Below are positions 3,860-31,289 of a DNA stretch of 64,000 bases, in pieces; the first letter of the stretch is position 1; the number at the start of each line of letters is the position of its first letter. The translations under genes and the position numbers were made by a program. Below the pieces are notes generated by a model that was not told the origin of the DNA, did not search any database, and was given only the letters and a program-made list of their open reading frames with translations. Source of the stretch: Fistulifera solaris (taxonomy: Eukaryota; Bacillariophyta; Bacillariophyceae; Naviculales; Stauroneidaceae); NCBI GenBank assembly GCA_030295235.1, contig AP026126.1:372001-436000 (forward strand). Reading direction: 5' to 3'.

Positions 3860-5509
3860 ATGCAATTGTATCTACTCGTTCTAATGACCATCACCTCTAG
3901 ACCCTTCGAAAGATTCGTTTCCTTGCTCAAGGAGAGGAAGAAGACATGCGTCGTGGTAGAGCAATGCTGCGGCGGCTTAATTCAAGGCACGTACGTTTGC
4001 CGTATCGTTGGTACGAATCTGTTTTCCTATCTATCTTCCTTACACCTTTGTCTCTTCGCAGCCTCTATTCTAGCGCAGCCGGGTGCTTCCTCGGTCTATT
4101 TCGGGGGCTCCGTATCGTACAACACCCGTAAAGCCAAGCCTCTTCTTCTGAACAGCGATGAATTGCATCAATCATTAATTCAGAAACAATTTACGGACTC
4201 GGCCGCGGGTTGCATTCAATCGAAGTTGCACTGGACCGCGGAAACCTCAATTGCGTATTGCCAAGCAATGGGAACTGATTTTGCAATCGCGGAAGGGGGT
4301 GCCTCCGGTCCTACGTTTCGACCAAGTGATATGAAAACGGGCTTTGCGGTGATTTCGGTGGCGGGGAAAGGAGAGGATGGAACTGTTTCGCTGTTAGGTC
4401 AAGACATCGTGCACTCTCCCACCAATAATCGAGAAGAGAATATGAGGCTTTTTGCGAATGCTGCTGCTAGTTTTGCAATTCACACTATCTGTAAGGGCAA
4501 AGACCCTTGCCTGCATCACGATAATTTGACGGTCAAAACGGCCGAGTCACTTGTCTTAGATCGGGCCACGCACTTTCGCACCGACGAGGCTAAGCTACAA
4601 GAAATGGAAAAAGTGGCACAATACATTATTTTACAAGATTGCCGTTCCATACTCATTCGATCAAATACTCCATCCACAAAACTAGCCTTCTTGACTCACG
4701 AAGAAGCGATCGGCATCATAGAGAACCAACGCAAGACTTTTTTAGGGATTCGTGCGAACGACACTCCTGTGTTCGCTGTCGACATTCTTGATGAAAAATT
4801 TTGCGCTCCACGAGGTACTGAGATTGTCGACACTCGAACAACAGCTCCCTTGCTTGACAAGATCGAGAATGAGCTGGCTCTCCACGCAACCGCATACGCA
4901 TCGTGGCAACGCCGAAATAAATACTGTTCTTTGTGTGGTGGCGCAACGATTGTGATTGATGGCGGAACATGCCTTCAGTGTAGTAGAGTGTGCTGCAAAA
5001 TCATGGCCGCGTCAAGATCCGAGCATGATTTGTGCCGTTTCTAGCAGAGACGGTGAAAAAATTCTGTTGGCACGCTCCCCACGCCATCCGGAAAAGTTGC
5101 ACACGACGCTGGCTGGATTCGTGGAAGCCGGTGAAACGTTGGAGGCTGCTGTGGCCCGCGAGGCGTTTGAAGAAACAGGGATCCGTATCGACGAGGGATC
5201 GGTCCAATATGTAGGCACACAGCCATGGCCTTTTCCGCAGTCTTGCATGTTTGGTTTTTTAGCAACTGCAGATGAAGAACAGCCACTTCATATTGACGCC
5301 AAGGAGATCCTTTCCGCACGATGGTTTACGAAAGAAGAAGTCGCGAAAGCAGCAACAGTCGAAGGACCGACCATGCAAAAGGAGTTGCACTTGCAGCACT
5401 GGAGCATGACCCCATGCTGCCCTTGCTGATACCTCCTAGAGGAGTTATTGCGCGAAAACTCATCGACCAATGGTTAACGGGATCATGGAAATATTTGAGG
5501 TCCAACTAA
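3860..5509 (+). CDS. PncC/CinA-like NMN amidase fused to NudC-type NADH pyrophosphatase (two apparent frameshifts)
   Basis: N-terminal part is a CinA C-terminal (PncC) domain: FVSLLKERK, then VVVEQCCGGLIQ, then PGASSVYFGGSVSY and YCQAMGTDFAIAEGGASGPT. PncC enzymes deamidate NMN to nicotinate mononucleotide. The C-terminal part is NudC/NUDT12-like: a zinc ribbon (CSLCGG, later Cys pair), WPRQDP, a complete Nudix box at 5115-5183 (GFVEAGE...REAFEETG) and the QPWPFPQS motif that marks the NADH-pyrophosphatase subfamily, which cleaves NAD(H) to NMN(H) and AMP. The two activities are consecutive steps in NAD recycling. A likely 75-nt GC-AG intron lies at 3987-4061. The frame shifts +1 near 4980-4992 and back -1 near the A-run at about 5371-5375; after it, LIPPRGVIARKLIDQWL is the normal family C-terminus. 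The usual ESCTGG of PncC reads EQCCGG, so amidase activity is uncertain. Confidence 0.8.
3987..4061 (+). other. Probable GC-AG intron in the PncC domain
   Basis: Reading straight through inserts about 25 residues between CCGGLIQ and SILAQPGASS, which no PncC domain has. The only excision that keeps the frame and restores family spacing uses donor AAG/GCACGT and acceptor TCTTCGCAG, giving IQ-ASILAQPG. A GT donor at 4002 is also in frame but leaves extra residues. Confidence 0.5.
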
Positions 5510-5549: not shown

Positions 5550-8317
5550 TCAATGGTATATGTACTTAAAATGACAGGTTTCTCTTTTTAACCAAGACTG
5601 ATTTTTGATTGGAAGCGATGAAATGGCAATCGAAAACGCCTGGACAGCAGTAAGCGGGTGCTGAAAATCCATTGTGAAAGAGTGTCGTCCTTGAATTCGT
5701 CCAAACTGAAGCAAAATGTTGTCTTGATCGTGGCGCTCGCAAAGCTGAAAATTTTTTACACTAGCCACGCTCACCCTACCACCAAAATTCAAAACAAAAG
5801 AACCCAGTTCCATATTCCACCAAGGTGGACGATTCTGCAAAACCGTCAAACCCATAGTGTCGTTCGGATCGGAAGAGCCATCCAGTTCCTGACCGTCATC
5901 AGCAATTGGATTCCGCTCTTGCCCATCAATTCTTTGCAGAATTTTTCGCAAAGAAGAGAGCATGCTGGCATCATCACCCGCATCTGCTTCCTCTAAGTAA
6001 CTCTTCCAGTGGGGCGAGAACTCTTTAGTTACTTTTGGGATACACACATCCATTGTGCGAGGTCTACTCCCGAGGAGGTTCGCTGTGTAAGCTATAACTC
6101 CGATCTCTTCTTCTGACACACAAGCGCCGTTCCTTTCTTCTTTATCGTCTTGATGTTCCGGAGTGCTAGCTGCAATGGCACGACGTTTCGATCTTCGAGC
6201 TTGGCCAATAATGTCCTGACCAGGAGTCCCGAAGAAAAAATGGCGATTGTGGGGCTCGTCTGCGGCCATATCTGTGTCTCCATTAGCACGACGAAGGGGA
6301 AAGTGGAATAAATAGCGCCGTGATGGTACATGATCTGTATATGGACTTATATCCTCGCCAAGAGTGCCATCCGTTTTCCTTGCGTGCGGTTTGACACGGC
6401 ATGGTGAAAATACCTGAAACTCTGTCCCGATAAAATTGCTTTGCAATCGGCCCAAATATTGCACCCTTTTGTCATCTATAAAGGCTACAGATCGAGAACG
6501 ATCGCTGCTTAAACCATCATAAACTTCTTCTTGATTGTTGACGGTTGCAAAGTGCGCATCGAGGTCTGCTTGTTCCGGCATACAAATGAAATAGTTATTT
6601 GCTCCTTTCTTCGAAATAAGCGTCGGTACCATCCCTCTTGCGTCCATCTGCGCGCGACTTTTTGCAACCAATAAAACCGTATCTTTGCGAGTATAGTCGT
6701 CCTCGTCAATCAACGGGGCCAATGGAGCAAAGGGCCGATCTCGGATAAATAACCGATACTCGTACGCGGGAAAGAAGCGACCTTTAACGCTAACACCTTT
6801 GCCACGTGACGGAGATTTAATGCGTTGGATTTCACACTGGACAACTCCTATAGCTTTCGGACATGGTTTTGTTAGAAAGCCCTGCAACAAGGACAGTCTA
6901 GGGACTGCAGTGTGACCATCATGGTAGTGAATGCCGGCGGTAGAAGGAAAGATTTCGTCCCAGAAATCCAACATGTACTCGTCGAAAGCGGCATTATCAT
7001 TTTTAGCAAGAATCGCATCTAGTTCGCGTTGGTAGCTATCAAAACGAATCTGAAGATCATCCAACGACAAAGAAACTCCGCTAGTGAAATCAGGCCGTCC
7101 CCGGAGCACAGTCGCGGCAGAATAGACCCTTGTATCTACTAGATCAACAACTGGCTTTCCTTTAAATGGTGAGGGTTCAATCTGAGGCTCAAATAAGTCA
7201 GCATGCGGCTGATTTTGAGCACCCCTCGCCAGACCGATAGCATGAGCAAGCAAATTAGCATGGAGATCAGCACCTGGTATCCGCGGCTCAAACGGATTCT
7301 CATCTTCCTCTTCTCCTGCAAGAGCTGGAAGAAAACGAAACTCCAGACGTGGTAATCGCGGTTTAAATATGCCTCGTTGTGTGTTCTTTCGCAGTGTTTT
7401 GTTGGAATGAAAGAAATCTACCGAAAGACTGACTGGAGAGTAAATATATTCTTCTTCCTCGGCAGCGTACCGCCCTGCCAAATGATAATCATACAAGTGC
7501 TGATGAATGTTTAGTCTCAACTTTCTCTTGTGGGAAGGAATATCCTTTGGGGAATCAGCGTTCAAAGCCTTATACAAACTATCAACAACAGTCCGATGGG
7601 GTGAAACATCCCTTCTGCTTGATACGAGCCCTGGTTCAATTTTGCTTTCTTTGTGCATCAAAAATAAAGCTTTTATTTCAAGATATGTCATGTCTCGGGA
7701 TAGGCCTCCATTTTGTTCACGAAAACTTTCACGTTCCTCGTAAAAGGGTCGACTTGGAAAGACCTTTCATCCTTTTCTTCTTCTTGCTTCATACGAATTT
7801 CTGTCTGCATTCTCCATAACATTGTTTGATGCACATGACCGTACGAACGTGGATACACCGGTACACCTTCCGAAATGTACAACGATATCAGCTCCCTTGC
7901 ATCTTCCTGAAAGCCCAGCTTCCACGCCGTGGCGGCTTCTAATGCACATTTGAATGCATGCATCCGAACCCGTCGTATAATTTCTCGAGCTACACGACAA
8001 GCTGCTCTGTTGAGTATAGCAAATACACTCCACTCGGAAGGATCAAGAAATGAGGCCACCGCGTGGAGGGCGTCTATAGGTAAGCAGACGATTCCGCAAG
8101 GGGCAGTGCCCATCGCCGCTTCATCAGAACGTTCTGGAGTATTACAAATTTCCATGTCACTATCTCCAAGTTCTGGGGTAGAAAATGCGTCGTTTTCTAC
8201 TAGCGCAGTCAATTTCTCTGCAGCATCGTGAGCGCCCGGCGAAGACGATAATTCTCTATCCTCGCTTTCGGCAAGAAGGACCTCTTCATCCCCGTCACCT
8301 GCGTTTGTCGTCTTCAT
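5550..8317 (-). CDS. F-box plus Tubby-domain protein (TULP-like), one apparent frameshift
   Basis: The first 209 codons (8317 to about 7745) contain an F-box: CLPIDALHAVASFLDPSEW followed by VFAILNRAACRVAREI. The following 713-codon frame ends in a Tubby domain: RVQYLGRLQSNFIGTEFQVF, GVIAYTANLLGSRPRTMDV, PPWWNMELGSFVLNFGGRV, SVASVKNFQL and the closing LQFGRIQGRHSFTMDF block. Tubby domains bind phosphoinositides; plant TULPs carry an F-box that recruits SKP1/cullin ubiquitin ligases. The two frames overlap by ATGA at 7688-7691, and the upstream part of the second frame (FYEERESFREQNGGLSRDM) reads as protein, so one base is probably missing in the CCCTTTT run at about 7742-7748. A further indel near 5611-5618 is possible, because the family normally ends SSF-x-SK and the alternative frame reads FQSKISLG then stop. 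The long middle region is lineage-specific. Confidence 0.8.
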
Positions 8318-20937: not shown

Positions 20938-22557
20938 TTAATATAGGCTGTTTTGCAAAATGTGTCGACGATTCCACGTTCGAAGCACTTCGTGCTCGGC
21001 GAAATAGGCAGCCTTTCGGCGCTCGTAAACCCCTCCATATCGGAGTTTCATTTCTCGAAGTTTCCCAAGTGTGCGCTCCAAATCATCGTCCTCCTTTGAT
21101 GGCGTTGTATTCTGATGAATCGAAAGGAAGAAGTTCATCAAGGCTGTGGTACTAACGGAGGACACAAACGTATTTCGTCCCTTTTGGCAACAGTTTCTAT
21201 TTCCCTGCTGTCCATTATCTACGATGGAAGGATCCAAGGCCCACCCGGTAGCACCATCGATGCATTCCAGAGAACCGTTGTCAATCGTTATGATCGTGGG
21301 CGATGATTCATCGGTACCAAGCCACCATGCAAAAGACAAGCTGGAGTGGAAACGCACGTCCTGGCCTGGATTGTCCGGATCCGTTTCGACAACGCCCTCC
21401 TCATCAAGATGGACGGACGTACCCATTATAACGGGATGCTTCGGTAAAATATCTTCAATGATTGTACCGACTTGAACGCAAAAGCTGCTGTCGCTAGATT
21501 CAAACAAATTGTCTTTCCGGGTTTGCTTTGCTCGATTGCATTTGGATCGTTTGAGTACATTCGACCCTACCGCACGGCAACATAGGGCGCGTCGGCATGT
21601 GATCGCACTCAGTTTTCTACCCACCGTCAACGTCTCTGGCACGATGCTTTCTTCTAGAAACGATGAAAGAAGAGAACCCTGCCACCCTAATATGTTCCAC
21701 CTCAGCATTTTGTCGGAACAAGTGTGCAGAGAACCTTTTCCTGAAAACACAGTCGTTGTGCCAGCGGGGCACCAATTCGTTTGACAGTTCGACGGCCAGG
21801 ATTGTTGCTTCGGACTTAATAATGTCATTTTTCTCTTTTGCAAAGAGATTTTCTCTTCTGTAGTGATTCTGTGTCCTTTGTCCTCTTTTAGTAGCAGAGA
21901 AAACTCTCCTTGCGACAGGGCATGTCCTGGTATATCTTCGTGATAAGGAGTTGGCCACTCATCGGGGCCTAAATCGTCTCGATACACCTCTTTTCGACAG
22001 GTTACAAAACGTTTCAGCACTGCATTACCACAGGGAGCCGATGAACTATAGGAGTGCAACGTGATTTGCGGATTCAGTTTGTACAATGGACGTTTCGTCG
22101 TATCATTGTCAGCGTCCCCCGTGGATTGAGAATTTTCAAGAATCATGCGGAACGGATCCCGCTGGGTATCTGGTTTCTTTGATTTGATATCGTTCAAGAT
22201 TTGAATAGATAAATAACGCCGCAATGCCCTCCTCGCCAAGACTTCCGCATGACAATCACGAACTCGATCCCCATACTGCGAGGGAGAAGCGGTTTCCTCC
22301 GCCAGTAAGGAATTGGAAAGAAACTTGGTACCCACTCCCATGGCAATGACCCGCAATTCTTTTGTTAAGCAATGATGCGCCACAATGGTCGCTACGCAAG
22401 TCTGTTTTTGCTCGTTGCGGAAGCTCTCTGGAACAACCTTGTGATAGTGATCGACGGATAGTTGAGCGATTCGATCCGCAAAAGCGCACGTCGAAGTGCG
22501 ACGCTTTTCGGCATGACGAACGGCGCGAGGTCGATCGCTTTGTTCCTTGTCTTGCAT
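20938..22557 (-). CDS. ADAT1: tRNA-specific adenosine deaminase 1 (ADAT1/TAD1)
   Basis: ADAR-family deaminase domain over most of 539 residues; ADAT1 converts A37 to inosine in eukaryotic tRNA-Ala. The zinc/catalytic set is visible: DCHAEVLARRALRRYL (His and catalytic Glu in HAE), SSAPCGNAVLKRFVTC (first Cys), and TCSDKMLRWNILGWQGSLLS (second Cys plus the conserved SDK..RWN..G.QG segment). The upstream ATIVAHHCLTKELRVIAMGVGTKFLS matches the domain start. No double-stranded RNA-binding domain is present, which separates it from animal ADARs and favours ADAT1. The start Met is at 22557. There is one exon and no frame break. The middle insertion with QSTGDADNDTTKRP is low complexity. Confidence 0.88.
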   Translation of the reverse strand: MQDKEQSDRPRAVRHAEKRRTSTCAFADRIAQLSVDHYHKVVPESFRNEQKQTCVATIVAHHCLTKELRVIAMGVGTKFLSNSLLAEETASPSQYGDRVRDCHAEVLARRALRRYLSIQILNDIKSKKPDTQRDPFRMILENSQSTGDADNDTTKRPLYKLNPQITLHSYSSSAPCGNAVLKRFVTCRKEVYRDDLGPDEWPTPYHEDIPGHALSQGEFSLLLKEDKGHRITTEEKISLQKRKMTLLSPKQQSWPSNCQTNWCPAGTTTVFSGKGSLHTCSDKMLRWNILGWQGSLLSSFLEESIVPETLTVGRKLSAITCRRALCCRAVGSNVLKRSKCNRAKQTRKDNLFESSDSSFCVQVGTIIEDILPKHPVIMGTSVHLDEEGVVETDPDNPGQDVRFHSSLSFAWWLGTDESSPTIITIDNGSLECIDGATGWALDPSIVDNGQQGNRNCCQKGRNTFVSSVSTTALMNFFLSIHQNTTPSKEDDDLERTLGKLREMKLRYGGVYERRKAAYFAEHEVLRTWNRRHILQNSLY

Positions 22558-22903: not shown

Positions 22904-25900
22904 ATGTCGAACTCTACACTTTCGTTAGTTCCGAGTGCTCCCAAGGCGACAGCACAAGTGAGGGAGGGACGCGTCGTCGAAGGCACTAATAATCATGAGG
23001 AAGGTCAGCAATCATCCGGTGAAGACTTACTCGACTTTATTGGTAGCAGTCCTGCATTCAAGCAACTGTTTTCTTTACCCTATTCGTTGGAGCAGTCTGT
23101 GAGCGTGGCGGTGCACAATTTAGGTGACACGCTTCTGCTCGACGTAGACCCCGGAGATCAGGAAATTTTAGACGAATGTGGTGACACAGACGCCGGAAAA
23201 GGTGACCATCCATTAAGCAAAGATCAATTGTCTCAAGCACTGGTCACTCTCTCCGAAGCAGAGCCCCAGAATGAAGCTATTGCACTAGTTCATTCTCTAA
23301 TCGAGTCGACGCAACCTAGCTCCAAAATAAAGGAACGAATTGTCGGTGTTCCCTATCCAGAAGACCAGATTACCCGTTTCATTTCGACTCCAAATGACCC
23401 TCGTGAATATCTATCCTGGAAATTTCGAAACATGAATCTTCTGGTTGGCTCCGATGCCTTTGTCTATCGCCCGCCGGAAGATCAAGCAAAAGGTGTTTCC
23501 GTCCGCATCGAAGATGTCAAGCTTCTTCAGTCCAAAATCCAGCTTCATCAAGAAATGCAATCCAAAAGCGAAAGAGAAAAGTTATCGTATGCACAAGTTA
23601 CGGCTCGTTCTTTGCCTCAATTAGAGCAAGGCGGCAACTCTGGACTGAGCGACAAGTGCCAAGAGTTTGTAGAGTCGGTTGAGGAAAAGCAACTTTCTGG
23701 ACCCGAATCGGATCAACTGCGACTTCAAACCTGTTTAGTATCATCGCCTAGTGTACCTATAGGCTCATTGCTGTCCCAAAAACCCGTGTTGCGGGGCGAA
23801 TCGCCCAGCACAAATAGCTCACCGATATCGACGGTTTTAGATGTCTACCTCGACAATATTATGGCGAATGTTCCGCAACTCGCCTTGTGCTTACAGGACA
23901 AGGGCTTCGTTCAAAGTGTGAAGCTGTTGAATACAGATCAGATTCCGTCAACGTTACTAAAGCCGTCGACAATTGACACCTCCATTCCCTTTCAAGTGTT
24001 GAACGGAGCGGACGATTCGGAGAGAATATTTTCACCGGAAGTCATGGAAATGAATGCCTCCACGCTTCTGGGCTTTTTAAAAGCCCAATGTACAAAAAGA
24101 CAATACTACATATTTATTGAGGAGAGAGGCGGGTGAAACAGCGATTCAGCTGTATGATATATCTGCGATTAGCACGCAGCGGCAGCAGAAGTGGAATTGG
24201 TGGCTGGCGATGATGTCTTACCGTTTTGCTCACCGTCTACGCTCTCTTTCGACTCAGACGGTTGATAAGGCTTTGAGCCGAAGTTTTCGGGCACGACAAA
24301 GAAGCCTGTTGACCACTTCTCTAGAGCTACTTGACGCGTTGGCCGATATGAACGGCAAAACCCACGAAAGTCTCCTCTCAGCGATCCGAGAAAATTTAGC
24401 AGACTCGTTTTTGGGTGGTACGGCTGATGATAATATTGAACCAGCAGATAGCAATAACCAGGACTCAAATGATATAGACGCTTTGCGACATCAACCCTAC
24501 TCAAGCGTATCCTTGGATGCTTTGAACAAGTCTCACGATCATTTGGTTGAAGGTATACGAATACTTTGGCCCTCGCTTGAACGCAATGTGAAGATGAAGA
24601 AGCGGAATGAACGGAGCCGACCTTTTGCGTCAAAAAAGTCATCTTCAGTCAAAGTTGTATCGGTGGACATTGATGACGACTCAAGCGGTGATGACGAAAA
24701 TGTGACTGCGATGGACTTGGATGTAATCGATCCCGTCGTGTCACAGCTCTTTGGATTGCATGAAAAGCTGGTCGATGTACTGTTGCGACTTGGTGAAATT
24801 CATCTGCAAAACTATTATTCGTCTAGTGCGATGCAGACACTGCGATCCGCAGCCCGTCGCATTTCCGACTCTTTATATTTAACCAATCTCATTGCGGAAA
24901 AGACAGAGAAGGCGGCTAAATGGCTTGACATTCTCCAGCTCCAGAATGCTTGGTTGTGGGAGCACTGTGGTCACTTTGCCCGTACCTTTGCAATGGACGA
25001 GCTATGGCGCGACCGGGGACATGCGTCTGGTGATGATATAGTCAGTGTGATTTTAGACGTTGATTCTGCATTGAAGCATGGCGACATTCTTTTTAGATCT
25101 CAGAATCAAGGAATCACATCGCTACGAAATCCCATTGATTTGCTATCCGAAAATACGGGAGGGGCAATAGGCTTGGATAACTTGAGTGGAGTAGTTGATG
25201 CTAGTGCACATGGCTCACCGTTACCCGAAGTATGCATTAGGGATGCGATCGAACTTCTGAACAAACAACGCCTGTTGCAAAGAGAGCATAGAAGAGTTTT
25301 GGTGATTTCGTCCATCGCGTACGGAAGGGCCATAGCATCGTATAAACTGGCTTCATTGTCAAACGATTCAGGACAGTATCTTTCTTTGCTCCAGCAAAGG
25401 TTGGGTGATGCATGCAACGAAACTGGCAAGGCGATGATGGACGAAGTTCGTCGTTTGCTAACCGCAGGTACTTTATCAAGTGCCGTCGAAGCATTATTAC
25501 GCTCTGCCGAATTTTGGTTTCGAGAAGGTCTGACTGTTTTCGAAACATGCAACGACTTGCGAAATGCCGCTTTACTGCGATGCAATTTGTGTCAGTGCTC
25601 GAAACTCCGTGCTAATGCGATGTTGGCACCTTCAGAAGGAACAGGGAATCACGCGGAAAAATGTCTACAGGAGGCCGTCCATCAATTGCAGTCAGCGCAT
25701 CAGTGTCTTGGACAACGAGATACCGATCCACCAACATGGGATATGGTCAGCAATGAACTGGCGGCGACCCTGTTAGTGCTAGGTGTCCGTCGTCGACAGT
25801 CGTTGATAGGCAATCTTCCCGTACTAGTGCGCCGTCTGTCTCCTGGTGAAGAACGGTCTGTGTTGGAGCCAATGGAGAATGCTTTGACCATTTATGAGCG

Positions 25901-26462
25901 AACTAGAAACTATCATCAAGCTGCTGCTGTCCATTATCAATTAGCACTCTTCTTCACCAAAATATGGACCTGTCAAAGGGATGAGAGTAAGACACGCGAA
26001 AAGTTATCTTCGGCGTTTTCTCATTTCCACGCATCCTACAACTTCTTTTCACAAAATGTACATGGAAACGAACCGACATTTTGCTTGCTATGTCTCGATC
26101 TTTGTCAGTTGTATTCCAGTGTATCTGGGGAGGAGGGTCTTCTGCAAGCTCTGTCTCGTTGTCTGGATACCGCTGTGGCTTTTTCGATCCATTCGTATGC
26201 CGCGCAACATACCAAAGCTTCCCCACAAGAGATTTCATTGTGGCTTAACCAGATGGTAACTTTGGCCGATTCTGTTGAAGAACGGGTGTTTAAAATTCTC
26301 CGAACTCTCATCAAATCCGACGAAACTGGAAAATACAAGGAATGGTTTCGGGTAGGTCTTTCCTGCAAAACCCGTGGCAGTGTCGATGCATCTTTAGAAC
26401 CTGAAGTGCAGAAGCTGCAGAGTTTACATTCGCTACTTGAAAGCATTAAGGGGTTGATGTGA
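22904..26462 (+). CDS. EDRF1: EDRF1-family protein, one apparent frameshift
   Basis: Large conserved eukaryotic protein (about 1190 residues here) with the full run of EDRF1 landmarks: LPYSLEQSVSVAVHNLGDTL, REYLSWKFRNMNLLVGSDAF, TVLDVYLDNIMANVPQLALC, LLNTDQIPS, LGFLKAQC and AGETAIQLYDISAIS followed by MMSYRFAHRLRSL. The rest is helical and TPR-like. Animal EDRF1 is linked to erythroid transcription, yet plants and protists have orthologues, so the ancestral role is unclear. The first frame stops at 24136; the second begins in the same segment, and the GAGGAGAGAGGCGGG stretch at 24119-24132 needs one base fewer (or two more) to join YYIFIEE to AGETAIQLYD. The gene is convergent with the TMEM65-GAF gene, 56 bp apart. 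Confidence 0.85.
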
Positions 26463-28611: not shown

Positions 28612-31289
28612 ATGTCCTCAAAGAAGGATACGCTCACAATCGGTCCCGCTGCCAAGCGAGAACTTCGTCGTACCCTCAAACGAAGTACCGATCCAGCCTC
28701 CACCATCCATACCTTTCAACGCGATCATTCGTTGCATACGATGATGGCGCGTGCTTTGGGAACGACTCCGCGGCATGAGACTGACGAAGGATATAATGAT
28801 ACAGTAGAATCGTTGGATACGGATTCGGTCATGACATTCTTATCGCATTTGGGTCTCTCGCAATACGAAATTCATAAACGCATTTCGGATACATTGCTAC
28901 AAACATTAGAGGAAGAGATCCGCAAATCTAATTCCACGGAACCGCTACTGCATTTACTCCAAGCTTGTTGGCCTTACGTCACCGTCGTACCGGAATTACG
29001 TCCGGTTTTGTGGTCGTTGTTACGGCAACTCGGTGATCGGACACCGGTAGCGGTCTTACAAGCGCTTGGAGAACGAGCTCCTGACGGAACGTGCAAACAT
29101 GCGGAACTCTTTCAACAATTGGACGGACATTTGAAACGATTGTGTTGGGAAACGGACTGGGATACCATAGTAAACAGTCGTGATGCATCTTACGAAACAA
29201 CGTTGCTCTATCAAACGATACACCCCATTGTGGAACAGTATTGCCGAAATGATACTTTAGTCGCACAAGCCAATCTACCTTTTGTAGCGACGACTCGCGA
29301 GCGCAGTGTTTTGACATCACAACGTCGGGCGTTGACGTCGTCTTCTTCCTCGACGGCGGCACCCACAAATAATTTTCTTCGTCACAATAAAACAGACAAG
29401 GCCACACCGACCTACGCTACGGGCAAGCAAATTGCGAAACTACGCACCTTATTATCCGATCGGACCGGGTCATCAGTATCGTATCGTCCCAAACTATTGC
29501 ATGCGCTCTTGTCTATTCTCATGACGCAGCATGCGCTCTGTCCAGTGCCGTTTCTCGGTGGGGCGCAGCATTTGCATTGCACACTGGTGGCCGATCTTCT
29601 CTTGTCGGCCGGCGGATCTCTTCCCTCGGCGTATCATTCGGTAGTCATTCTGGCGGGTATCTTGGACGAATGTGTGCAGCAGGGGCGGTAAGCGATGAGG
29701 CCTTGGTCAAAATTCAGACCCATTTGGTCACCATCTTTCAGTCGAAAGCGGATGAAAATGTCAAGGAGGAGGAGGAGGAGTCGGAACGAGTCAAGGAAAC
29801 GAAGAAAGATGAGAGTAGCAACAAGAAAGAGGATGTAGTGACGACCAATGCCGAAATTCGACAACTCAATCGTCTTTTGACAGCTGGATTGAATGCCATG
29901 AAAGAAGCCGATCCGCAGAATTTGTTCCTCAATCCTGTAACAGACGCAATTGCACCGGGTTATAGCAAAATCATCAGAAAGCCCATGTGCATTTTAACCA
30001 TGCAAGAGAATATTGCCAAAAACCGTTACAACAACATTGCCGAATGGGAGTCGGACGTCAATCTCATGTTTAAAAACTGTATCGATTACAATCGCGGGAG
30101 TGCAGGCCAGTGGTTTCGTGGTGAAGCACAACGACAAGGAACCATATTTCGCGACGAGATTCTTCCGCAAGCGAAGCGTCTTTTTCAACAGGAAATCGTC
30201 AAACGATCAGTACTGGAAGCTGAGGCGGGGAAACGACGAGCCGAAGAGCCCTTAGTAAAACCGATGAAGGCTTCGTCGAAAAAGCGCAAAATAGATCCCA
30301 CCGATTCCCTTCCCAGCATGCCGGCACTCGCATCTATGTTGCTATCGGATCCTTTTGTGGTCCGCGTTCTTTTGGCGCGCGTGTTGCGAGACTTGCGACA
30401 TGGAGTATTGCCCGGGAACTCCATTCCGGCTGTTCATGCGGTGATTCCGTCGGTGCTACAGATTTTGAACATTGCCCGCTCTTCCACCCAGGTTTGCGCC
30501 AGTCGGGGACGAAAATATTACGTTCCGGATGCAGGAATCGAGTCATCGAAAGATGCAGCAGCCATAGTCTCGTACGCATCTTTGCGGCAGATCCTTCCCC
30601 TCCTTCTCCGTCTACTGACGCAAGCTGAGCTACAGAAACGAGTGACACAAGGAGGAGAACTGTGTGCCGCAGCCCAAGTATCACCCCGTTTAGAAATCAA
30701 GCCGATTTCGGCGGAGCATTGGAAAGGCGTCGACGATGTACAAGTAGTCGCGGCAGTAGTTTCCGGAGCCATCGTTTTGTTTTGTCAACCTGGTAGTGGC
30801 TATGAGGCAGCTATGGTATCAATATTCCCACATCTCGCGGCGTCTCTACAAGCCTTGTCTTCTGCGAAACTGGAGCCGGTATTTTTGAAGTGTTTGCTAC
30901 AAATGATTCTGCGGCACCGAGCTAAGCTCCAAAAATCAGTACGCGATGTTATTGTGCAATGCTGGATGGACTGGATGCGCGGGACACCAGAAGCTATGAC
31001 ATCGGCGACACACGAGTATTATGTTAAGCTTCTGGCTGAGTGGTCTTTGTTGGGAAATTTATTGCTGCCACGAGATACGCTCGTGGAGTTTCTAGGGAGT
31101 GGCACTGACGCAGCAAGTGTTTCCGATAAGCGATCGCTTGCCTCACTCTGGAATGACAAGCAATTTCATTATATCCGAACAGAATACGAGCGAGTGCTAA
31201 AAATACTTCCAGACAATAGAGCAGCTGAATGGAAGCGAGCAATGAAAATTGAAGATGCAGCACCTGAAGTTGGAATTCCGGCAGCGTGA
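28612..31289 (+). CDS. Bromodomain protein, one apparent frameshift
   Basis: The first 359 codons are helical with a Ser/Thr-rich linker (TSSSSSTAAP). The second frame contains a bromodomain: LFLNPVTDAIAPGYSKIIRK, PMCILTMQENIAKNRYNNIA and FKNCIDYNRG, with the acetyl-lysine-binding Asn in DYN. Acidic/lysine-rich stretches flank it (KEEEEESERVKETKKDES, SSKKRKIDP). The first frame ends CVQQGR-stop at 29691; with one G added to the G4 run at 29682-29685 it reads CVQQG-AVSDEALVKIQTH and joins the second frame, giving about 890 residues. Bromodomains read acetylated histones; the class IV deacetylase gene lies only 0.8 kb downstream on the other strand, but no functional link is shown. The exact subfamily is unclear. 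Confidence 0.8.

What the first reader, a model, noticed from the sequence alone, without database searches (positions are those of the whole stretch)
3860..5509. PncC (NMN amidase)-NudC (NADH pyrophosphatase) fusion: two consecutive NAD-recycling steps in one protein
An N-terminal CinA/PncC domain and a C-terminal NudC-type Nudix hydrolase are encoded in one gene. NudC releases NMN from NAD(H); PncC converts NMN to nicotinate mononucleotide. Fusing them would couple NAD(H) breakdown to a deamidating salvage route. The PncC signature ESCTGG reads EQCCGG, so the usual catalytic Ser is replaced; either a Cys acts instead or the domain has lost amidase activity and only senses nucleotide. The first is established family knowledge; the coupling is inference.
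Basis: partly seen in the sequence, partly recalled or inferred. Interest (0 to 1): 0.75.

Follow-up and report, generated by a model that had tools for sequence, protein, structure and literature searches.

The report
Diatom NudC with altered CinA domain
A diatom gene joins an enzyme that cuts NAD(H) to a domain related to bacterial NMN deamidases; the join is real and found in many diatoms, but the deamidase half has lost or altered its known catalytic residues, so it more likely binds a nucleotide than performs the second reaction.

Summary
One gene (3884-5509; 75-nt intron at 3987-4061) encodes a CinA domain (PF02464), a flexible linker and a NudC-type NADH pyrophosphatase with its defining motifs. 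It matches the database protein "NAD+ diphosphatase [Fistulifera solaris]", and 117 of 120 listed proteins carry both domains (494 further hits were not listed). Those with a readable organism name are all diatoms; seven are transcript-derived. Two frame breaks in this window are most likely assembly indels.

Best reading: an NAD(H) pyrophosphatase with a former-deamidase domain that binds a pyridine mononucleotide and probably tunes NudC. Two-step NAD recycling is not supported. A rewired active site remains possible.

The parts
3884..5509 (+). CinA-NudC fusion gene (coding span; an in-frame ATG at 3860 lies 8 codons upstream)
   Evidence: closest relatives start at MTITS/MKITS/MTIVS; stop TAA 5507-5509
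3987..4061 (+). 75-nt intron, GC-AG (GT-AG in the C5 homoeologue)
   Evidence: removing it gives GGLIQASILAQPG as in P0001
3911..4474 (+). CinA domain (PF02464), residues 10-172 of P0001, interrupted by the intron
3959..3976 (+). EQCCGG, counterpart of the PncC signature ESCTGG; catalytic Ser is Gln27
4292..4294 (+). invariant Glu112 (AEGGASGPT), shared with the bacterial sister clade (29 of 29)
   Evidence: 119 of 119
4475..4558 (+). variable linker, residues 173-200
   Evidence: no column at 95% or more; mean pLDDT 46 and 59 for residues 181-190 and 191-200
4559..4906 (+). NUDIX-like N-terminal half of NudC (residues 201-316)
   Evidence: PF09296 19.2 bits, below cut-off 22, on P0001; matched at E<=0.01 in 26 of 48 rows; no six-frame match in the genome at E<=0.001
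4925..4991 (+). NudC zinc ribbon, Cys323, Cys326, Cys341, Cys344
   Evidence: all four Cys in 116 of 120; PF09297 30.0 bits
4985..4988 (+). frame break (AGAG where P0001 has one Lys codon); the C5 copy has two bases here
   Evidence: read as an assembly indel
5115..5183 (+). Nudix box GFVEAGETLEAAVAREAFEETGI
   Evidence: seven defining residues all kept in 118 of 120
5217..5243 (+). TQPWPFPQS, the NADH-pyrophosphatase array
   Evidence: QPWPFP plus Ser428 in 120 of 120; motif described in PMC3283747 (passages)
5379..5380 (+). second frame break (two bases where P0001 has one Lys codon), the same in both homoeologues
   Evidence: read as an assembly indel

Best explanation
The gene encodes a diatom NAD(H) pyrophosphatase of the NudC type with an N-terminal CinA domain that is no longer a standard NMN deamidase. 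SHOWN by sequence and model: the single-gene fusion; the NudC motifs; the CinA fold; retention of the NMN-phosphate-holding residues (Gly42, Ser44, Tyr54, Arg158); loss of the catalytic Ser in this species and of a fixed catalytic Lys; grouping with a bacterial CinA clade in which that Lys is mostly Arg. INFERRED: NudC cuts NAD(H), or NAD caps on RNA, into NMN(H) and AMP. The CinA domain binds NMN(H) or a related mononucleotide without deamidating it and, across a flexible linker, acts as a product sensor or retention domain that adjusts NudC activity.
Against: No binding, activity or regulation has been measured. Lys60, one residue beyond the ungapped Lys site, is Lys in 95 of 118, and global hhalign pairs it with the catalytic Lys by a one-residue gap; 31 of 110 rows have both Ser27 and Lys60 and could be active. 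All 48 rows scanned match the PncC domain model at E<=0.01, best 4.1e-12; only P0001's bit score was shown. The strongly conserved Cys29 (108/110), Lys89 (119/119) and Glu112 (119/119) could be catalytic rather than ligand-binding. The phosphate-site residues are equally invariant in the canonical and ESSxGG rows, so they do not by themselves tell a binder from an enzyme. That Arg158 matches E. coli R142 / A. tumefaciens R145 rests on alignment and recalled numbering.
Confidence: 0.5

Rival explanations
1. Rewired enzyme: the CinA domain is an active hydrolase with a new catalytic set (candidates Cys29, Lys89, Glu112) acting on NMN, NMNH or another product of NudC.
For: Cys29 108/110, Lys89 119/119, Glu112 119/119. 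At these sites canonical rows have Thr in 33 of 34, Ser in 32 of 34, and never Glu (0 of 34); ESSxGG rows have Glu112 in 29 of 29 and Ser or Thr at 89 in 29 of 29, so Glu is shared and Lys89 and Cys29 look like diatom changes. CinA is as constrained as the Nudix domain (dN/dS 0.063 against 0.050).
Against: No 3D distances could be measured. Cys29 is Ala in one row and Ser in another. Position 89 lies in a stretch that aligns with gaps. Ligand binding would explain the same conservation.
Confidence: 0.22
2. True bifunctional enzyme: NudC makes NMN and the CinA domain deamidates it to nicotinate mononucleotide, feeding NadD-NadE.
For: This gene pair gives the only PF02464 matches in the genome. 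NAD synthase and NMNAT-like (PF01467) matches are present, so the downstream route may exist. 31 of 110 rows have Ser27 and Lys60. 48 of 48 rows match the PncC domain model at E<=0.01. JGI names four listed relatives NudC/PncC (P0031, P0097, P0103, P0105).
Against: F. solaris lacks the Ser. P0001 scores 30.9 against the PncC cut-off of 68.9. No row has Ser27, Lys60 and Thr/Ser113 together. S and K single mutants of bacterial PncC are inactive (PMC5384747, PMC8231969, passages).
Confidence: 0.15
3. Structural tag: the CinA domain is only a dimer scaffold that stabilises or clusters NudC, with no ligand.
For: A. tumefaciens CinA is a homodimer (PMC5384747, passages) and mycobacterial and E. coli NudC dimerise (PMC3283747, passages). 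The domains are joined by a variable linker.
Against: The phosphate-pocket residues are invariant; a pure scaffold would not need them.
Confidence: 0.1

Closest known systems
NudC / NUDT12 NADH pyrophosphatases (NF001299, PF09296-PF09297-PF00293; PDB 5iw4, 6o3p, 8zb4)
   Different: Carries an N-terminal CinA domain; the first Ser of SQPWPFPQS is Thr in F. solaris; NUDIX-like half scores below Pfam's cut-off
Bacterial PncC NMN deamidase (TIGR00199; PDB 2A9S, 4UOC)
   Different: Catalytic Ser is Gln, no Lys at the ungapped Lys site, Thr105 position is Gly; P0001 below the TIGR00199 cut-off; joined to NudC
CinA (COG1058 pyrophosphatase + PncC), e.g. T. thermophilus and M. tuberculosis CinA
   Same: Works alike in plan: a pyrophosphatase joined to a PncC-type domain (PMC4246079, PMC9033802, passages only)
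   Different: There the pyrophosphatase is COG1058/MocF, not Nudix; canonical rows keep Ser and Lys (34 of 34) and lie elsewhere in the tree; the CinA-type domain is C-terminal there, N-terminal here
Bacterial ESSxGG CinA clade (SAR324 L009, L014-L017; P0138-P0161, P0165), function unknown
   Same: Glu112, Arg158, Asn161 (29 of 29 each), no catalytic Lys (0 of 29); 100/99 grouping with diatoms
   Different: Keeps Ser at the catalytic position (29 of 29) and Thr/Ser at 113; other or no fusion partners; 0 of 76 hits carry a NUDIX label
Fungal CinA proteins, lineage 2.2.3.4 of PMC3855486 (passages)
   Same: Eukaryotic CinA domains that keep the Tyr but not the Lys of block P-III
   Different: Not reported there as joined to NudC in the passages seen; not compared by sequence here

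Membership tests
CinA domain, PF02464 | score over the Pfam gathering cut-off (23.5 bits) | tested here: met
   62.4 bits for P0001; 48 of 48 rows match at E<=0.01
CinA domain, PF02464 | CinA C-terminal fold | tested here: met
PncC NMN deamidase | score over TIGR00199 cut-off 68.9 | tested here: not met
   30.9 bits for P0001; 48 of 48 rows match the model at E<=0.01, but bits were shown for P0001 only
PncC NMN deamidase | catalytic Ser of ESCTGG (Ser29 E. coli, Ser31 A. tumefaciens) | tested here: not met
   Gln27 in F. solaris; Q 67, S 41, T 2 of 110
PncC NMN deamidase | catalytic Lys (Lys61 E. coli, Lys63 A. tumefaciens) | tested here: inconclusive
   ungapped site is Ala59, Lys in 0 of 118; hhalign with a gap pairs Lys60, present in 95 of 118
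PncC NMN deamidase | residues holding the NMN phosphate (Gly46, Ser48, Tyr58, Arg145 of A. tumefaciens) | tested here: met
   Gly42, Ser44, Tyr54 118/118, Arg158 120/120; the Arg pairing rests plus recalled numbering
PncC NMN deamidase | NMN to nicotinate mononucleotide activity | not testable with these tools
   needs an assay
NudC NADH pyrophosphatase | score over NF001299 cut-off 158 | tested here: met
   223.6 bits for P0001
NudC NADH pyrophosphatase | Nudix box GX5EX7REUXEEXGU | tested here: met
   G386, E392, R400, E401, E404, E405, G407 in the window; all seven in 118 of 120. The U after RE is Ala here (T 46, V 40, A 34 of 120)
NudC NADH pyrophosphatase | SQPWPFPQS array | tested here: met
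   TQPWPFPQS here (S to T); QPWPFP with Ser428 in 120 of 120, exact SQPWPFPQS in 90 of 120
NudC NADH pyrophosphatase | four-Cys zinc ribbon | tested here: met
   present across the 4985 break; 116 of 120; PF09297 30.0 bits, cut-off 24.8
NudC NADH pyrophosphatase | NUDIX-like N-terminal half over Pfam's cut-off (PF09296, 22 bits) | tested here: not met
   19.2 bits for P0001; 26 of 48 rows match at E<=0.01. A common but weakly conserved part; the whole-protein NudC model is met
NudC NADH pyrophosphatase | NAD(H) hydrolysis | not testable with these tools
   needs an assay
Bacterial ESSxGG CinA clade | grouping with the clade, apart from canonical PncC/CinA | tested here: met
   diatom + ESSxGG 100/99; the ESSxGG rows alone only 91/49, so diatoms could lie inside them; diatom stem 1.72 is long

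The most novel reading that the evidence does not exclude
Diatoms carry a rewired CinA domain, fused to NudC, whose active site uses Cys29 with Lys89 and/or Glu112 instead of the Ser/Lys pair and acts on NMNH or another product of NADH cleavage: a new nucleotide hydrolase reaction, channelled inside one protein and present across the group.
Probability: 0.18. Interest if true: 0.75.

Novelty: new variant of a known kind. Interest (0 to 1): 0.45.

Why it matters
This gene pair gives the only PF02464 matches in the diatom genome. If the domain is not a deamidase, this diatom has no PF02464-type NMN deamidase, and automatic labels such as "NudC/PncC" put a reaction into diatom NAD models that may not exist. 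If the domain senses NMN(H), it would be a natural product-sensing switch on NAD(H) breakdown in a major group of marine algae, built from an enzyme whose single Ser or Lys mutants are already known to bind NMN without turning it over. It also draws attention to a bacterial CinA clade of unknown function that lacks the catalytic Lys.

Tried and rejected
Programmed frameshifting at 4985 and 5379: rejected. The two homoeologues need opposite shifts at the first site and database copies read straight through. A bromodomain gene in the window is cut by one base at 29685 where its C5 counterpart is open for 874 aa; an EDRF1-like gene (domains in two frames) differs by one base near 24094, but its C5 copy is broken too. 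I could not look at raw reads.

A second intron in the zinc ribbon: rejected, no room for one between the two aligned frames.

Bacterial origin of the whole fusion: not found. The genome-contig scan with the CinA profile gave 2 loci. A search scored on a bacterial CinA domain gave 76 long proteins, none with a NUDIX label; it scored only 7998 candidates and did not list the known diatom fusions either, so it says little about eukaryotes.

Stand-alone diatom CinA: the search with the domain alone gave 17 proteins of 123-315 aa, 45-68% identical. I read them as pieces of the fusion (sequences); none looks like a bacterial PncC.

Haptophytes and other algae: not reached. One search lists 120 of 614 hits; the other 494 were not seen.

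PF09296 against the whole genome: no match.

Paper searches without a paper on this fusion: CinA+Nudix+diatom 0 papers; at least three of NudC, PncC, fusion, NADH pyrophosphatase gave 10, by title and start of abstract none on it; NAD salvage+diatom+nicotinamide mononucleotide 0; CinA+diatom+competence 13, 10 listed, unrelated by title; Nudix hydrolase+diatom+NADH pyrophosphatase 0. Most subscription papers are not held.

Rows dropped: the tree uses 93 of the 120 sequences in its input file; the 27 left out have broken or off-frame parts or are fragments or near-duplicates, judged by eye. Of the 120 diatom-type proteins, 20 went into that tree, 48 into the structure and family scans and all 120 into the residue counts.

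Full report
WHAT IS THERE. The window lies in a 51.7-Mb genome of 61 contigs. The encoded protein matches the database protein "NAD+ diphosphatase [Fistulifera solaris]" (P0001, 516 aa; one search gives 100% identity over 98% of my query). A second copy lies on contig C5, 88.9% identical over 2,988 aligned bases. This fits F. solaris, described as having 42 pairs of homoeologous chromosomes (PMC5935921, passages); the species name for the window is my inference.

GENE STRUCTURE. Exon 1 runs to 3986, the intron is 3987-4061 (GC-AG; in the C5 copy GT-AG, 69 nt) and exon 2 runs to the stop at 5507-5509. The upstream in-frame ATG at 3860 precedes the start that the closest relatives use (3884; P0004, P0005, P0007, P0011; some others have longer N-termini). 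The reading frame breaks at 4985-4988 and 5379-5380. P0001 crosses both points without a break, and so does P0003, a JGI metagenome protein that equals the C5 copy everywhere except at the two breaks. The C6 copy has one base too many at the first site and C5 one too few; at the second both are one short. In the same window a bromodomain gene (28612-31289) is cut by one base while its C5 counterpart is open for 874 aa; an EDRF1-like gene (22904-26462) is split into two frames in both copies. I conclude that this assembly carries small indel errors. Coding constraint holds in every segment in its own frame: dN/dS 0.063 CinA, 0.194 linker to zinc ribbon, 0.050 Nudix, 0.189 C-terminus; off-frame controls on exon 2 and on the Nudix segment give 1.2-4.1.

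HOW WIDESPREAD. The search gave 614 hits, of which the best 120 are listed. By their Pfam columns 117 of 120 carry PF02464 and PF00293; the three exceptions (P0002, P0003, P0120) lack the CinA label, and the first two are truncated at the N-terminus. Entries whose printed name gives an organism (the name column is often empty or cut) are all diatoms: Fistulifera, Mayamaea, Pseudo-nitzschia (taxid 44447), Amphora, Corethron (class Corethrophyceae), two Nitzschia, two Cylindrotheca, Attheya, a Bacillariaceae MAG. Seven listed entries are transcript-derived (P0059, P0076, P0079, P0095, P0096, P0098, P0109), so the join exists in single mRNAs. Hits 121-614 were not seen, so the spread outside diatoms is open.

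Bacterial PncC needs a Ser/Lys pair. S31A, K63A and R145A of the A. tumefaciens enzyme are inactive (PMC5384747, passages). E. coli S29A and K61Q are inactive but still bind NMN, apparent Kd 37 and 125 uM (PMC8231969, passages). In the diatom proteins the Ser site is Gln in 67, Ser in 41 and Thr in 2 of 110; the next position is Cys in 88, Ser in 20, Thr in 2; the Thr33 site is Cys in 108 of 110.

The Lys site is ambiguous. HMMER against 2A9S and MAFFT align it without a gap to Ala59, which is Lys in 0 of 118. A global hhalign puts a one-residue gap and pairs Lys60, which is Lys in 95, Gln in 13, Arg in 5, Met in 2, Leu in 2, Pro in 1 of 118. Under either reading the Lys is not fixed. Position 113 (Thr105) is Gly in 104, Ser in 9, Ala in 6 of 119, and no row has Ser27, Lys60 and Ser/Thr113 together.

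WHAT IS KEPT. The counterparts of the residues that hold the NMN phosphate (Gly46, Ser48, Tyr58, Arg145; roles from PMC5384747) are invariant: Gly42, Ser44 and Tyr54 118/118, Arg158 120/120. Four of four falling in the 43 of 163 columns kept at 95% or more has a chance of 0.004. I chose these four from the literature; the Arg pairing uses plus recalled numbering; and the same four are kept in the canonical rows (34 of 34) and ESSxGG rows (29 of 29), so they show a kept pocket, not a lost activity. Also invariant or nearly so, and unlike canonical PncC: Cys29 (Thr in 33 of 34 canonical rows), Lys89 (Ser in 32 of 34) and Glu112 (Glu in 0 of 34). By alignment Lys89 falls near block P-IV of PMC3855486, described there as the outer part of the surface depression (passage); this is inference.

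WHERE IT COMES FROM. A scan of the GTDB species collection (84,980 bacterial and archaeal species) with the domain profile gave two loci, the better one a SAR324 MAG (L009, 35% identity). Its relatives (L014-L017, and P0138 onward) form a CinA clade with Ser27 in 29 of 29, Arg in place of the Lys in 27 of 29 (Gly in 2), Glu112, Arg158 and Asn161 in 29 of 29; canonical rows in the same alignment have Ser and Lys in 34 of 34. A tree of 93 rows puts 20 diatom rows with this clade at 100/99. The canonical rows lie on the far side of a 92/95 branch, with a SAR324 group of longer proteins in between. The ESSxGG rows on their own have only 91/49, and the diatom stem is long (1.72), so the diatoms could lie inside that clade, and some long-branch effect cannot be excluded. 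The series is Ser+Lys (canonical), Ser+Arg (bacterial sister), Gln or Ser without a fixed Lys (diatoms). On a quick tree of the NudC half the Ser/Gln switch needs at least 2 changes over 110 rows.

METABOLIC SETTING. Besides this gene pair the genome has no other PF02464 match, and a search with P0001 found only the two copies. It has matches for NAD synthase, NMNAT-like proteins, NAPRTase, isochorismatase-type proteins and NadA, so NaMN, if made, could be used. None of this shows that NMN is deamidated.

MECHANISM. Most likely (0.5): NudC cuts NAD(H); the CinA domain binds the mononucleotide product or a relative without deamidating it and adjusts NudC across a flexible linker (mean pLDDT 46 and 59 for residues 181-190 and 191-200). 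Rivals: rewired enzyme 0.22, true bifunctional enzyme 0.15, scaffold 0.10. Nothing here measures activity or binding.

NOVELTY. Automatic annotation already records the join (JGI: "NADH pyrophosphatase NudC/NMN deamidase PncC" for P0031, P0097, P0103, P0105; UniRef: NAD(+) diphosphatase). [quoted passage not shown] the passages I saw do not name them. It also reports fungal CinA proteins without the Lys. Five paper searches gave no paper on the diatom fusion. The new points are the conservation of the join in many diatoms, the loss of the PncC catalytic pair with the phosphate site kept, and the tie to a Lys-less bacterial clade. The nearest plan in print is CinA itself, a pyrophosphatase (COG1058) joined to PncC (PMC4246079, PMC9033802; passages).

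Noticed in passing
window 28612-31289 and 22904-26462: A bromodomain gene is cut by one base at 29685 while its C5 copy is open for 874 aa; an EDRF1-like gene is split into two frames here (near 24094) and also in its C5 copy. This suggests indel errors in the assembly.
   Followed up: partly
window 3987-4061 and L002 1439-1507: The same intron is GC-AG in one homoeologue and GT-AG in the other.
   Followed up: yes
G000 C11:1165030-1165985: The NadA copy on C11 is cut into two frames with one TGA, while the C12 copy matches in one open frame; could be another assembly indel or loss of one homoeologue.
   Followed up: no
P0142, P0144, P0145, P0149, P0151-P0155, P0157-P0160, P0165: Bacterial ESSxGG-type CinA domains fused to an ArsC-type domain (PF03960), 273-291 aa; P0147 carries a SIR2 label with CinA, but its CinA C-terminal part looks off-frame.
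   Followed up: no
L012, L020, L022-L027, L030-L032: SAR324 genomes hold a further group of CinA-like proteins (mostly ETSTGG, ETGMAGPP), mostly in ORFs of 430-500 aa, that forms its own clade (99/98 for the 10 rows used); Lys site is Gln in 7 and Lys in 3 of 10.
   Followed up: no
window 20938-22557, minus strand: A gene with an adenosine-deaminase (editase) domain, PF02137, 120 bits.
   Followed up: no
window 5550-7691, minus strand: Tub-family gene (PF01167, 158 bits) directly downstream, convergent with the fusion gene.
   Followed up: no
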